64,000 nucleotides of DNA from Melioribacteraceae bacterium (GTDB taxonomy: Bacteria; Bacteroidota; Ignavibacteria; Ignavibacteriales; Melioribacteraceae), in contig BQMY01000074.1 of NCBI GenBank assembly GCA_022181065.1, forward strand, positions 1 through 64,000. The letters are read 5' to 3'. Below the pieces are notes generated by a model that worked only from the letters and a program-made list of their open reading frames with translations, was not told the DNA's origin and searched no databases. Below are positions 24,056 to 30,229 of this stretch, piece by piece. How positions within the stretch are numbered: position 1 is the first letter of the stretch; every line of letters begins with the position of its first letter. The position numbers and the translations under genes are program-made.

Positions 24056-26437
24056 ATGAAAAAGTTACTATTGTTAATGATAATTTTCAGCGGAATCCTT
24101 TCAGCGCAAGACCTTACCGGATACAGGATTTATATAAATCCCGGTCATGGCGGGTATGATTCAAATGACCGTTTTATAGCAGCAACAGGCTTCTGGGAAT
24201 CTGTGGGTAATCTTCATAAAGGACTTGAATTATATGACATGCTTGAAGACCTGGGCGCTACTGTTGATATAAGTCGTACCACTAATTTTTCTTCGGATGA
24301 TTTACCGCTATCGGTAATTGCTCAGTTGGCTAACCAATTCAACGCGGATTATTTTCACTCAATTCATTCGAATGCATTCAACGCACAAATTAACTATACC
24401 CTGGTACTGTTCAGAGGATATGATAATCAGCCGGTATTCCCGCAGGCTAAAACTATGGCTCAGATTCTCTGGCAAAAAATTTATGATGTAAACCGTGGTT
24501 ACTGGACTTACGGTTTTGTTAATGCTCGCGGCGACTGGGATTTTTACGGAAGCACCTCCGGTCTGGGCGTTTTAAGGAACTTGAATATGCCCGGTACTCT
24601 GTCTGAAGGGTCCTTTCATGATTACATCCCTGAATCATGGCGTTTAATGAATTATGCATATAAAACGCACGAATCATTCGCGATCGCCCGTTCTTTCCTC
24701 GATCTTTACAACCAGCCTGATTATCAATTTGGTATTGTTGCCGGAATATTACGCGATCCCGCTCAGGGAGTTTCCTATTATGCAATTCCCGCGACCAATG
24801 ACCCGAAAAACCCTGTTGGAGAAGTAACAGTAAGATTGGAACCGGGTAACCTGACATATACAACCGATATGATGAACAACGGCTATTATATGTTCGACAG
24901 CCTTGCTCCCGGTAACTATACGGTTTACTTTGAACATCCCGAGTATGTTAACGACTCTACCGAAATAACAGTCACTGCCGGTGTCAGTAAATTTGCCGAC
25001 AAAATGTTGCAGTTTGATATCACTGTTCCACCTGTCGTGGTCTCAAGTAATCCTGAAAATGGTGCAAATGATGTTTCCGCGATTGGTCCGTATTCATTTA
25101 CTTTCAGCAGAGAGATGTCAGCAGAATTAACACAAAATGCTTTTGAGATAAATCCGGCGGTCAATGGAAATATTTCGTGGAGTTCGGATGAGCGGACATT
25201 CTTTTTTACTCCTGATGAACCGCTTGAAATTCTCACTGAATACACCGTTTCTTTCGATACTACCGCAAGAAGTGTGTATGGTTACAGTCTTGATGCGCCT
25301 TTTGAGCTTACTTTCACAACCGGATCAAGAAATAGCCTTTCAGCTACATCATTTTATCCGGCTGATGGAGAAACCGGTATAACTACGTATCCTCAGGTAA
25401 GAATAAATTTTGACGCCCCAATTCTGCAATCTTCATTAACCAATAAGGTTGCGCTTTATGACTGGAATGACGCTAAACTCCCAGTTAGAAACGTGCAGAT
25501 TGTTATCGGAGACCTTACTTCATACATTAGGTACGAATCTAAAGACGAACTTGAACCAAATTCGGTTTATAAAGCGGTATTTAGCGCGGGGATTAAAGAT
25601 CTGGAGGGTTACGAACTTCAGGAAGATATTATAATGAACTTCACAACTACTGATGAGGAATATTTTAGTGGAAATATCTTTAACGCATGCGAAAACCTGT
25701 CAGATTGGGTGAGTCCGGCTAACAATGCCTCGTCATATAATTTCAACCCCGACCATACAGTCTTACAAACAGTAAATAAACCATTGTTTGAAGGTTCAGC
25801 ATCCCTGGAGTTGGAGTACGAATTTACCGCAGCCGAAGGTGAAGTATATATTACACTCAATTCCCCCTTCGATATTGGTACTAATACAAATAGTGCCGGA
25901 ATTTGGGTATTTGGTGATTTGAGTGGAAACGTTATCAAGTATGAATTTACAATTAGCGGATCGAGTGAATTTGTTTTATCCGATACTCTGGATTTCGCCG
26001 GCTGGAAAATGTTTAATGTTGACTTGAATAATCTCACACAATCAGATGAAATATTGTTCAAATCAGTAATAGTTGAAAAAACCGGTGATGGTAATTTTGG
26101 CGGTATGGTTTATTTTGACGCATTACAAACTGACGCTGAAGTAACTTACGTGGAAGAGAGTAATTTAACACCGGATAATTTCAGATTATTCCAGAACCAT
26201 CCAAACCCGTTCAATCCGGCGACACAGATAAAATATCAGTTGAAAGAAAGCTCGAATGTTAAGCTTACAGTCTATGATATGCTCGGTTCAGAAATAGAGA
26301 CGCTGGTAAATAGTGAGCAGCCTGCAGGTACATACAGCGTTAGTTTTGATGCTTCCAAACTTTCCAGCGGAATTTATTTCTATACAATCGTCACAGAAAA
26401 CTTTGTTAAAACAAGGAAAATGGTTCTTATCAAATAG
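24056..26437 (+). CDS. N-acetylmuramoyl-L-alanine amidase (Amidase_3) with T9SS tail
   Basis: The 793-residue protein has a signal peptide and an Amidase_3 zinc domain at about residues 20-215: His31 in NPGHGG, Glu48 in FWES and His104 in HSIHSN are the expected zinc ligands, and Glu184 in LSEGSF is the likely catalytic Glu. It continues with a carboxypeptidase-regulatory-like beta domain, two Big_5-type Ig domains (about 325-530; PYSFTFSREM, PQVRINFDAP), a carbohydrate-binding-like beta domain and a T9SS sorting tail (FQNHPNPFNPATQIKY ... KMVLIK). Surface export suggests it attacks peptidoglycan of other cells or debris rather than its own wall; that is inference. Confidence 0.88.
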   Translation: MKKLLLLMIIFSGILSAQDLTGYRIYINPGHGGYDSNDRFIAATGFWESVGNLHKGLELYDMLEDLGATVDISRTTNFSSDDLPLSVIAQLANQFNADYFHSIHSNAFNAQINYTLVLFRGYDNQPVFPQAKTMAQILWQKIYDVNRGYWTYGFVNARGDWDFYGSTSGLGVLRNLNMPGTLSEGSFHDYIPESWRLMNYAYKTHESFAIARSFLDLYNQPDYQFGIVAGILRDPAQGVSYYAIPATNDPKNPVGEVTVRLEPGNLTYTTDMMNNGYYMFDSLAPGNYTVYFEHPEYVNDSTEITVTAGVSKFADKMLQFDITVPPVVVSSNPENGANDVSAIGPYSFTFSREMSAELTQNAFEINPAVNGNISWSSDERTFFFTPDEPLEILTEYTVSFDTTARSVYGYSLDAPFELTFTTGSRNSLSATSFYPADGETGITTYPQVRINFDAPILQSSLTNKVALYDWNDAKLPVRNVQIVIGDLTSYIRYESKDELEPNSVYKAVFSAGIKDLEGYELQEDIIMNFTTTDEEYFSGNIFNACENLSDWVSPANNASSYNFNPDHTVLQTVNKPLFEGSASLELEYEFTAAEGEVYITLNSPFDIGTNTNSAGIWVFGDLSGNVIKYEFTISGSSEFVLSDTLDFAGWKMFNVDLNNLTQSDEILFKSVIVEKTGDGNFGGMVYFDALQTDAEVTYVEESNLTPDNFRLFQNHPNPFNPATQIKYQLKESSNVKLTVYDMLGSEIETLVNSEQPAGTYSVSFDASKLSSGIYFYTIVTENFVKTRKMVLIK

Positions 26438-26922: not shown

Positions 26923-28605
26923 CTACTTCACCAGCTGCATCTTTTTACTAATTGTTGTCCCCGCGTGTGTGAGCCGATAAACATAAACGCCGGAAGCAAC
27001 ACCTGCTCCCGCGCCATCATTGCCGTCCCAGATAACCGAATACGATCCCGCAGCTGAATACTTATCCACCATGGTTCTAACTCTTCTCCCGGTGATATCA
27101 AAAATTTCGAGTCTGGCTCTACCCGGTTTATCGAGAGAATAACTAATAGTTGTGGATGGGTTGAACGGATTGGGATAATTTTGTTGAAGATCAAAACCGG
27201 TTGGAAGCGTCGAAATCCGCTTAATATTTGTAACGATTTCAAGAATTTTATCCGCGGCGTTCTCACCTGAAATATAAGCGCCGTGGGTTGTTCCCCGGTA
27301 TGCGTTGATAGTATGTTCACCGGCGAAAAACAGTTTTCCGTCAACGGGCGTCTGCCAGTCATCAAAATATTCGGGGGAAGAAGCAATATTGGCAAAAGAA
27401 TAGGAACCTTTCGCGAATTCATCCTGAGTCCACCGCGAAACCACCACGCCGGTTGGTTCGGGAATAGAATCACCATAAATTGTTTTCAGGATAGCCATAA
27501 CATCATCCTTGATTTGCTCATCTGTCTGCGATTCCATTGTAAGACCGTAAAGCCCGAATCCGAAAGTCATTAGTCCGTTCACAGGTACGAACTTTCTCGC
27601 GTTGAGAAAATAGGGGTACTTTCCTTTCAGATCGGTAGTTACACCAATATATTGCATCTCCTCATCCCAGAAAATGTCATCAAAACTGAGGAATACCTTG
27701 TTGATATATCCAACCTTCACCTGGTCAACCAGCTCAGTTTTGGAGGTGGGCAATTCGGGGACAAACTCAACACTTTCATTTTTCAAAACACCCAGCGGCA
27801 AGGTAACCACCACATGATCAGCTTCAAATTCACCATTGTTGGTAGTTACATAAATGATATTATCGGAATAATCAATCTCGGAAACAATATGTTCTGTTCT
27901 GATATCAAGCCCCTCCGCGAGATAGTTGGTCAGAGCGTCATATCCATTGGGGAAAAGTACATCATTACCCGGAAACTTTGTGTCATTTTCCCAATATTTG
28001 GATGATAATTCTGCAATATCACCACCGGAATCAAATTCCATGTAGGAGGTGAGCTGATAAAGCATAATTAAATCAGACAAATAAGAAGGTTCGATATTCT
28101 GTATTGCGGTTTCAACAGAAGTATCCTCGTTTAACCCAGCGGCATAGTTTGAAATATCTTCAAGCAGAGTGTTATAATTTTCATAATACTCCTCCATTGT
28201 AGCGTCATCAATTTCATCACCGTTATTATCATAAATAACCAGACTCTCATCATCTGTCTCGAAGGTATCGGGATCAACTATATCGGAAAGCTGTTTTACA
28301 GGATTATCATTTGAGGGGCCATGTATCCATGAAGCACCCAGATCAACCGGAAACCCAAGTGATCGGTCCGACCAAATTCTTCCGCCAATTCTATCACGTG
28401 CCTCCAGAACAATAACGTCCAGACCCGCGCTTTTAAGTTTAACCGCAGCCGAAAGCCCTGCGAATCCGGCACCAACAACAATAACCCTTTTAGTGTTTAA
28501 TAAACGATTTGAAGTCTTTCCTTTACCTGAAGCAACTCCCGGTAATGCCGCAACAGAAGTCAATAGTGCTAACTGTTTGAGAAAATCACGCCTCTTCCCT
28601 TTCAT
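26923..28605 (-). CDS. Flavin-containing amine oxidase with Tat-like leader and T9SS tail
   Basis: From the ATG at 28605 the protein is 560 residues; the longer reading adds 20 residues that do not belong to a leader. It starts MKGKRRDFLKQLALLTS, a twin-arginine-type signal, then the FAD Rossmann motif VVGAGFAGLSAAVKL and EARDRIGGRIWSD of the amine oxidase family. FFAGEHT...GTTHGAYISG near residue 440 is the C-terminal FAD-binding motif of monoamine/polyamine oxidases. The last 85 residues are a T9SS sorting domain (QQNYPNPFNPSTTISYS ... KKMQLVK). It should oxidise amines and release peroxide and ammonia outside the cell. The substrate is unknown. Confidence 0.9.
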   Translation of the reverse strand: MKGKRRDFLKQLALLTSVAALPGVASGKGKTSNRLLNTKRVIVVGAGFAGLSAAVKLKSAGLDVIVLEARDRIGGRIWSDRSLGFPVDLGASWIHGPSNDNPVKQLSDIVDPDTFETDDESLVIYDNNGDEIDDATMEEYYENYNTLLEDISNYAAGLNEDTSVETAIQNIEPSYLSDLIMLYQLTSYMEFDSGGDIAELSSKYWENDTKFPGNDVLFPNGYDALTNYLAEGLDIRTEHIVSEIDYSDNIIYVTTNNGEFEADHVVVTLPLGVLKNESVEFVPELPTSKTELVDQVKVGYINKVFLSFDDIFWDEEMQYIGVTTDLKGKYPYFLNARKFVPVNGLMTFGFGLYGLTMESQTDEQIKDDVMAILKTIYGDSIPEPTGVVVSRWTQDEFAKGSYSFANIASSPEYFDDWQTPVDGKLFFAGEHTINAYRGTTHGAYISGENAADKILEIVTNIKRISTLPTGFDLQQNYPNPFNPSTTISYSLDKPGRARLEIFDITGRRVRTMVDKYSAAGSYSVIWDGNDGAGAGVASGVYVYRLTHAGTTISKKMQLVK

Positions 28606-29524: not shown

Positions 29525-30229
29525 TCATTTCGGATTTGTAGGTCGTACCTCTATCTCACTCACCATAGCCCTCGGTGGTAATTTTATCATAGTTGAAATA
29601 ATATCAGCCACATCCTCACCAGTCAATATTTTGTCAATGTTTTTCGGTTCTATTGGAGTATTGGCTATCATGTCGGTATCTACGGAACCGGGACAAATAG
29701 TTCCTACCCTTATATTGTGTTCTCTCAACTCAAGCATCAAAGAGCGAGAAAAGCCCATAACCGCGTGTTTGGTAGCGGCATACATTGTACCATGAACAAA
29801 ACCGTTTTTTCCCGCAAGGGAGGAAACAGTAAAGATTGAACCTGAATTTCTTGCAATCATACTGTTAACAACAGCCTTTGTAACGTTATAAACACCGAAC
29901 ATATTAACATCCATCTGCTGTTTGAACTCATCAAGTGTTGAATCAACAAACTTTTTGAATATCGCCAAACCGGCATTGTTTACCAGATGTTCAACTCCAC
30001 CCCATTCTTTTTCGATAGTTTTGACGGAATCATTTACGAAAGCGGTGTCTGTCACATCGCCTGAAAAAATTTTCAGGTTTTCACTATCGTTGATCTCTTC
30101 TTGAAGGGAAGCCAATAATTCGCTGTTTCTGCTGAACGCCGCAACCCTGAAACCATCATTATATAGTTTTATTGCTATAGCTCTGCCAATTCCACGCGCA
30201 GCTCCGGTTACAACAACTACCTTTTTCAC
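29525..30229 (-). CDS. SDR oxidoreductase, possible sepiapterin-reductase-like (1)
   Basis: This 234-residue classical SDR has the cofactor motif TGAARGIGRA at residues 7-16, NNAG in HLVNNAGLAIF, a catalytic Ser in FTVSSLAGKNG and YAATKHA (YxxxK). The C-terminus EIEVRPTNPK fits the group of SDRs that includes sepiapterin and clavulaldehyde reductases. It is the last gene of a run with bcp, a PTPS-family gene, folE and a second SDR. By context it may reduce a pterin side chain. A general keto-reductase role cannot be excluded. Confidence 0.75.
   Translation of the reverse strand: MKKVVVVTGAARGIGRAIAIKLYNDGFRVAAFSRNSELLASLQEEINDSENLKIFSGDVTDTAFVNDSVKTIEKEWGGVEHLVNNAGLAIFKKFVDSTLDEFKQQMDVNMFGVYNVTKAVVNSMIARNSGSIFTVSSLAGKNGFVHGTMYAATKHAVMGFSRSLMLELREHNIRVGTICPGSVDTDMIANTPIEPKNIDKILTGEDVADIISTMIKLPPRAMVSEIEVRPTNPK

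What the first reader, a model, noticed from the sequence alone, without database searches (positions are those of the whole stretch)
26923..28605. Amine oxidase with both a Tat-like leader and a T9SS tail
The start MKGKRRDFLKQLAL fits a twin-arginine leader, as expected for a protein that binds FAD before export, and the end is a clear T9SS sorting domain. T9SS cargo normally reach the periplasm through Sec. A folded flavoprotein passing through Tat and then through the T9SS pore would test how folded cargo can be.
Basis: partly seen in the sequence, partly recalled or inferred. Interest (0 to 1): 0.52.

Follow-up and report, generated by a model that had tools for sequence, protein, structure and literature searches.

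The report
Folded enzymes with two export tags
A bacterial amine-oxidising enzyme carries a front tag for the export gate that takes ready-folded proteins and a back tag for the gate to the cell surface; two other enzyme families in related bacteria keep the same pair of tags, although reviews say such surface cargo always enters by another gate.

Summary
Window 26923-28605 (-) encodes a 560-residue FAD amine oxidase with a twin-arginine (Tat) leader (18.9 bits, cut-off 16.7) and a T9SS type A tail (40.6 bits, cut-off 23). The genome has TatC, a SprA translocon and at least 150 T9SS tails. Of those 150 ORFs, 136 have Sec-like leaders, 12 could not be classified, and 2 have RRxF leaders: this enzyme and a CueO-like multicopper oxidase.

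The amine oxidase alone is a one-off fusion: 0 of 29 homologues read have a tail, though 20 have RR leaders. The multicopper oxidase is not: both arginines are invariant in 26 of 26 complete orthologues, and all 26 have the tail. A third family, DUF1501, has RR in 28 of 28 and the tail in 25 of 28. Reviews state that T9SS cargo use Sec.

Best explanation: Tat exports the folded holoenzyme, then T9SS moves it to the surface. No transport was measured; GldM was not found, PorV was not searched, and the Tat model misses the own multicopper oxidase leader. New variant of a known kind.

The parts
26923..28605 (-). FAD-dependent amine oxidase gene with RR leader and T9SS type A tail (560 aa, P0001)
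28531..28605 (-). Tat-type leader MKGKRRDFLKQLALLTSVAALPGVA (residues 1-25); RR at residues 5-6; cleavage site not determined
   Evidence: TIGR01409 18.9 bits vs 16.7; 18.1 bits at 28531-28593; TatP expression
27241..28464 (-). amine oxidase domain (residues 48-455); FAD motif GAGFAGL at residue 45; conserved Lys303; GEHT at 429
   Evidence: PF01593 5e-82; Lys column K in 29 of 30 aligned sequences, window included; nearest solved structures LSD1, LSD2, maize polyamine oxidase
26938..27177 (-). T9SS type A sorting domain (residues 477-556); the protein ends in KKMQLVK
   Evidence: TIGR04183; PF18962, PF13860
28613..28619 (-). ribosome-binding-like AAGGGAA before the ATG at 28605
   Evidence: read directly from the sequence; no separate test

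Best explanation
The protein is a surface or extracellular FAD amine oxidase of the LSD1/polyamine-oxidase branch that is exported in two steps. It folds and binds FAD in the cytoplasm, the RR leader takes it through the Tat translocase, and the C-terminal type A domain hands it to the T9SS, whose SprA pore passes it across the outer membrane. Outside it would oxidise amines, most likely with O2. Shown by sequence: both signals, the enzyme family, TatC, SprA. Inferred: use of Tat, folding and FAD loading before export, use of T9SS, activity outside. It is one case of a Tat-to-T9SS route that two other enzyme families of the same class (CueO-like multicopper oxidases and DUF1501 proteins) keep as a fixed architecture.
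For: Both signals exceed curated cut-offs. TatC 229.8 bits. SprA_N, and the whole 2179-aa protein matches solved SprA 6h3i at 3e-118; the next gene is a PorX-type Response_reg-PglZ protein (7pv7, 1.8e-141). At least 150 T9SS tails in the genome, all 150 scored being over cut-off. Leader hydrophobicity: 136 Sec-like leaders of tailed ORFs mean 2.99; 23 Tat leaders without tails mean 1.96; window 2.17, P(Tat) 0.82 in a two-feature classifier that never sees the RR motif, leave-one-out 119/136 and 21/23. Family conservation: MCO 26 of 26 with TIGR04183 and invariant R3 R4; DUF1501 28 of 28 RR and 25 of 28 with TIGR04183. RR is written with 9 codon pairs in MCO and 8 in DUF1501, so the amino acids are kept, not the DNA. 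In Sec-type tailed leaders dibasic pairs are 35 KK, 8 KR, 7 RK and 1 RR. Tat-leader amine oxidoreductases without a neighbouring cytochrome c gene mostly react fast with O2 (PMC12224317 passages); no long ORF lies between this gene and the SDR gene at 29525-30229.
Against: No localisation data. 0 of 29 amine-oxidase homologues read has the tail, so the fusion here could be recent and untested by selection. GldM (TIGR03517) was not found, though that search rang in no control either. PorV, PorU and the rest of the motor were not searched; TatA was not searched. TIGR01409 does not hit the own MCO leader, and the classifier gives it P(Tat) only 0.38. 4 of 29 MCO and 1 of 30 DUF1501 leaders are called Sec by that classifier. 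One DUF1501 leader read is RK (L331). SignalP and TatP themselves could not be run.
Confidence: 0.7

Rival explanations
1. The leader is used by Sec despite the RR pair; the enzyme crosses unfolded, picks up FAD in the periplasm, then goes out by T9SS like other cargo.
For: All reviewed T9SS cargo are said to use Sec. The own MCO leader looks intermediate (P(Tat) 0.38) and misses TIGR01409. The regular expression alone gives 7% false positives on Gram-negative Sec proteins (PMC1182353).
Against: Strict R3 R4 in 26 of 26 MCO and 28 of 28 DUF1501 sequences with varied codons, while Sec-type tailed leaders use KK/KR/RK (50 of 51 pairs). Low h-region hydrophobicity of the window leader and of both families. 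FAD and multicopper enzymes are typical Tat passengers (established knowledge).
Confidence: 0.13
2. Tat exports the enzyme, but the tail does not send it out: the T9SS is incomplete or the tail acts only as a stability or anchoring domain, so the enzyme stays in the periplasm or at the inner face of the outer membrane.
For: No amine-oxidase homologue read has the tail. GldM not found. 3 of 28 DUF1501 tails are not matched by TIGR04183.
Against: SprA is present and near full size with a PorX-type neighbour; at least 150 tails in the genome; 26 of 26 MCO tails are kept down to the last Lys.
Confidence: 0.13
3. The gene is a misassembly or frame error that joins a tailless Tat amine oxidase to the end of another T9SS gene.
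For: Only one copy of this fusion was found; reads are not available.
Against: One open frame with no stops; similar G+C in the catalytic and tail parts, 0.43 and 0.45; the nearest listed tail elsewhere in the genome is only 49% identical, so the tail is not a copy of a listed one; the same architecture recurs in two other families.
Confidence: 0.03

Closest known systems
T9SS type A cargo (e.g. gingipains; TIGR04183 / PF18962)
   Same: C-terminal type A domain over curated cut-offs; SprA translocon in the genome.
   Different: Reviews give a Sec signal peptide for all cargo (PMC10202324); here the leader is Tat-type and the passenger belongs to an FAD-binding family.
Tat-exported flavoprotein amine oxidoreductases (NicA2, Pnao and relatives; PMC12224317)
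   Same: Amine oxidoreductase fold with a TAT leader; no adjacent cytochrome c gene, like those that mostly react fast with O2 (passages).
   Different: Those are described as periplasmic; the passages seen mention no T9SS tail. This protein is nearer LSD1/polyamine oxidases among solved structures.
CueO / SufI multicopper oxidases (second case, G000:C130:16413-18122)
   Same: Cu-oxidase domains; CueO and FtsP/SufI models match, below their equivalog cut-offs. CueO and SufI are Tat substrates in E. coli (recalled). His/Cys ligand positions are among the invariant columns (their role recalled).
   Different: A T9SS type A tail in 26 of 26 complete orthologues scanned.
DUF1501 (PF07394) proteins
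   Same: Pfam domain and RR leader.
   Different: T9SS tail in 25 of 28 scanned.
T2SS cargo exported by Tat
   Same: Two-step secretion in which Tat, not Sec, makes the first step (PMC9127263 passage).
   Different: Different outer-membrane machine; here a linear C-terminal signal.

Membership tests
Tat substrate | RR.[FGAVML][LITMVF] near the N-terminus | tested here: met
   RRDFL; TIGR01409 18.9 vs 16.7 bits
Tat substrate | h-region less hydrophobic than in Sec leaders of the same genome | tested here: met
   9-mer 2.17 vs mean 2.99 (n=136) and 1.96 for Tat leaders (n=23)
Tat substrate | Tat translocase in the genome | tested here: met
   TatC 6.4e-68; TatA not searched
Tat substrate | export depends on TatC and on RR | not testable with these tools
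   needs an experiment
T9SS type A cargo | C-terminal type A sorting domain at the very end | tested here: met
   TIGR04183 40.6 vs 23 bits, residues 477-556 of 560
T9SS type A cargo | N-terminal Sec signal peptide (as reviews describe cargo) | tested here: not met
   leader is Tat-type by model and hydrophobicity; description from PMC10202324
T9SS type A cargo | SprA translocon in the genome | tested here: met
T9SS type A cargo | GldLM/PorLM motor and PorV shuttle in the genome | tested here: inconclusive
   TIGR03517 no hit, and nothing rang in controls; PorV and GldL not searched
T9SS type A cargo | found at the surface or outside, SprA-dependent | not testable with these tools
   needs an experiment
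Flavoprotein amine oxidoreductase | PF01593 domain with GxGxxG FAD motif | tested here: met
Flavoprotein amine oxidoreductase | conserved active-site Lys (LSD1 Lys661 recalled) | tested here: met
   Lys303, K in 29 of 30 aligned; aligned with LSD1 NKV
Flavoprotein amine oxidoreductase | amine oxidation with FAD | not testable with these tools
   needs an assay

The most novel reading that the evidence does not exclude
In this bacterial class a standing Tat-to-T9SS route exists: enzymes that must fold around FAD, copper or another cofactor in the cytoplasm are exported folded by Tat and then handed, still folded and loaded, to SprA by their type A tails. The rule that all T9SS cargo enter through Sec is then wrong, and fully folded holoenzymes are natural T9SS cargo.
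Probability: 0.7. Interest if true: 0.72.

Novelty: new variant of a known kind. Interest (0 to 1): 0.62.

Why it matters
T9SS models start with unfolded Sec export and folding in the periplasm. Cargo that can only arrive folded through Tat would set a hard test of what the T9SS shuttle and SprA accept, with a built-in readout (FAD or copper occupancy of the enzyme outside). The conserved multicopper oxidase and DUF1501 families give many natural test proteins. Signal-peptide and secretome pipelines that demand a Sec peptide for T9SS cargo would miss them.

Tried and rejected
Considered and dropped: (1) The amine oxidase as a conserved Tat-T9SS family: rejected, 0 of 24 class homologues and 0 of 5 phylum homologues read has a tail. 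(2) A general mixing of RR leaders with T9SS tails: rejected. Of 77 tailed ORFs with a readable N-terminus among loci found by tail similarity, 5 have the TatP expression in the first 90 residues of the open frame; by eye most are upstream of the start or Sec-like, and L032 is ambiguous. (3) My first hydrophobicity ranking put the own MCO at 1.93; it used an inner Met. The value from the true start is 2.58, so the note that both leaders rank among the three least hydrophobic is withdrawn for the MCO. (4) GldM as proof of the motor: no hit, uninformative control. (5) The genome-contig scan with the whole protein was swamped by tails, and so was; the searches were repeated with the catalytic part only.

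Rows dropped before counts: one search gave 33 Tat hits; 31 were fetched and read (two short ORFs, 184 and 169 aa, left out); 3 of 31 have a tail. The 23 Tat control leaders are those that I listed and the script could place, out of the 28 tailless ones. MCO: 30 loci read of 81 genomes with a hit; 26 used, dropped L258 and L277 (cut), L269 (N run), L261 (broken copy). DUF1501: 30 loci read of 167 genomes with a hit; 28 used, dropped L331 (cut, RK leader) and L341 (N run). Both sets are the best-scoring loci, not a random draw. The tail census is the 150 of 258 candidates that one search scored. In the tree the label RR on L133 is a false match inside the domain; L133 has no leader.

Full report
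What is there. The gene at 26923-28605 (-) codes for 560 residues. Residues 48-455 are a flavin amine oxidase domain (PF01593, 5e-82), and the end is a T9SS type A sorting domain by Pfam-A and NCBIfam models. The leader MKGKRRDFLKQLALLTSVAALPGVASG passes TIGR01409 (18.9 bits, cut-off 16.7). In the own genome it is one of five leaders over that cut-off. A start 20 codons upstream exists but would bury the leader; the ATG at 28605 has a ribosome-binding-like AAGGGAA before it.

The enzyme. Nearest solved structures by sequence are LSD1, LSD2 and plant polyamine oxidase. The FAD motif is at residue 45, and the active-site lysine of this superfamily (recalled for LSD1 as Lys661) is Lys303, conserved in 29 of 30 aligned sequences. 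No long ORF lies between it and the SDR gene upstream, so no adjacent cytochrome c gene is seen there. Tat-leader amine oxidoreductases without such a neighbour mostly reacted fast with O2 in PMC12224317 (passages seen), so an O2-using oxidase is the likelier reading.

Homologues. In 391 genomes of the class, 25 including the own had a match to the catalytic part at 1e-20. All 24 others were read: 16 have RR leaders, 1 RK, 6 none and 1 is cut; none has a T9SS tail. In 395 phylum genomes (some overlapping the class set) 7 had a match at 1e-60. Five loci from the newly found genomes were read: 4 RR, 1 without, no tail. In a tree the window protein groups with L130, L286, L287, L288 and L290 (support 0.989). 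By eye, L130, L287, L288 and L290 carry a Cys just after the hydrophobic stretch, as lipoproteins do, while the window protein has none and has a tail instead. The tail thus looks like a late addition to a Tat enzyme.

Machines. TatC is present. SprA_N is present, and the full protein matches solved SprA at 3e-118. The next gene is a PorX-type regulator. GldM was not found, in a search that rang in no control genome either. PorV and PorU were not searched.

Census of tails. The own genome has at least 150 T9SS tails, the number scored of 258 candidates, all over cut-off. The N-termini of all 150 were fetched and read. 138 have a hydrophobic leader; the other 12 are cut by contig ends or have starts that the script did not resolve. 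Two of the 138 have an RRxF Tat-type leader: this enzyme, and a TTG-start multicopper oxidase at G000:C130:16413-18122. In the other 136, the TatP expression occurs once, in a Sec-like leader, and dibasic pairs are KK 35, KR 8, RK 7, RR 1.

Hydrophobicity. In a test that ignores the RR motif, 136 Sec-like leaders average 2.99 and 23 Tat leaders without tails 1.96. The window leader scores 2.17 with P(Tat) 0.82. The MCO family averages 2.00 (25 of 29 called Tat) and the DUF1501 family 1.82 (29 of 30). The own MCO leader is intermediate, 2.58 with P(Tat) 0.38, and TIGR01409 does not hit it.

Second family. The catalytic part of the multicopper oxidase matches 81 of 391 class genomes at 1e-40. 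The 30 best loci were read. Of these, 26 are complete and free of N; all 26 have the T9SS tail by TIGR04183, and R3 and R4 are invariant. RR is written with nine codon pairs. Invariant His and Cys columns match the expected copper sites (site roles recalled). The relatives are CueO, SufI/FtsP and bilirubin oxidase.

Third family. In six other genomes, 31 of 33 Tat-model hits were read and 3 have a T9SS tail. All three are DUF1501 proteins. DUF1501 homologues of this kind occur in 167 of 391 class genomes at 1e-40, not in the own genome. Of the 30 best loci, 29 have the RR motif and one has RK. Of 28 complete ones, RR is invariant in 28 and the tail is found by TIGR04183 in 25.

Tail side elsewhere. 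Among 77 tailed ORFs with readable N-termini from loci chosen by similarity to the window's tail, one or none has a Tat-like leader by eye. The pairing is rare in general and fixed in particular families.

Literature. [quoted passage not shown] PMC7463736 and PMC9251779 also give Sec as the route (passages). PMC9251779 also describes T9SS as moving folded proteins. My searches for Tat with T9SS, multicopper oxidase with type IX secretion, Ignavibacteria terms, DUF1501 with T9SS and cargo terms listed no paper whose title or abstract start reports a Tat-exported T9SS cargo; one search listed no paper at all. Of the listed papers I looked into passages of PMC9251779, PMC5445135, PMC9127263, PMC10202324, PMC12635249, PMC7463736, PMC5837995, PMC1182353, PMC4804311, PMC3237569, PMC7073777 and PMC12224317, and saw no such report there. 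The library is open-access only, and the SprA structure paper (PMC6927815) is not held, so earlier mention cannot be excluded.

Verdict. For this one gene the tail has no conservation behind it. The larger finding is that two other enzyme families in the class keep an RR leader and a T9SS tail together, which is best explained by a Tat-to-T9SS route for pre-folded enzymes. This is inference from sequence; no transport step has been shown.

Noticed in passing
G000:C130:16413-18122 (L252), G010 L257, G032 L258: The tailed multicopper oxidase is about 100% identical in three genera of one family, which suggests recent transfer or shared contamination; G118 (L261) holds a broken copy with three stops.
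   Followed up: partly
window 24056-26437 (+): N-acetylmuramoyl-L-alanine amidase with Ig-like domains and its own T9SS tail, convergent with the amine oxidase.
   Followed up: no
L249:29-8149: sprA is directly followed by a PorX-type response regulator with a PglZ domain.
   Followed up: partly
L130, L287, L288, L290: Four of the five nearest amine-oxidase relatives have a Cys after the Tat-like leader, as in lipoproteins, so anchoring by lipid and export by T9SS tail may be alternatives.
   Followed up: no
L253 (G000:C78:1374-1601 and upstream): A T9SS-tailed protein with CxxCH motifs, so a haem protein may also be T9SS cargo; its open frame gave no leader.
   Followed up: no
L032:3001-3312 and upstream: A tailed ORF in a Calditrichaceae genome with an MNRRSFFLLAAL leader, undecided between Sec and Tat.
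   Followed up: no
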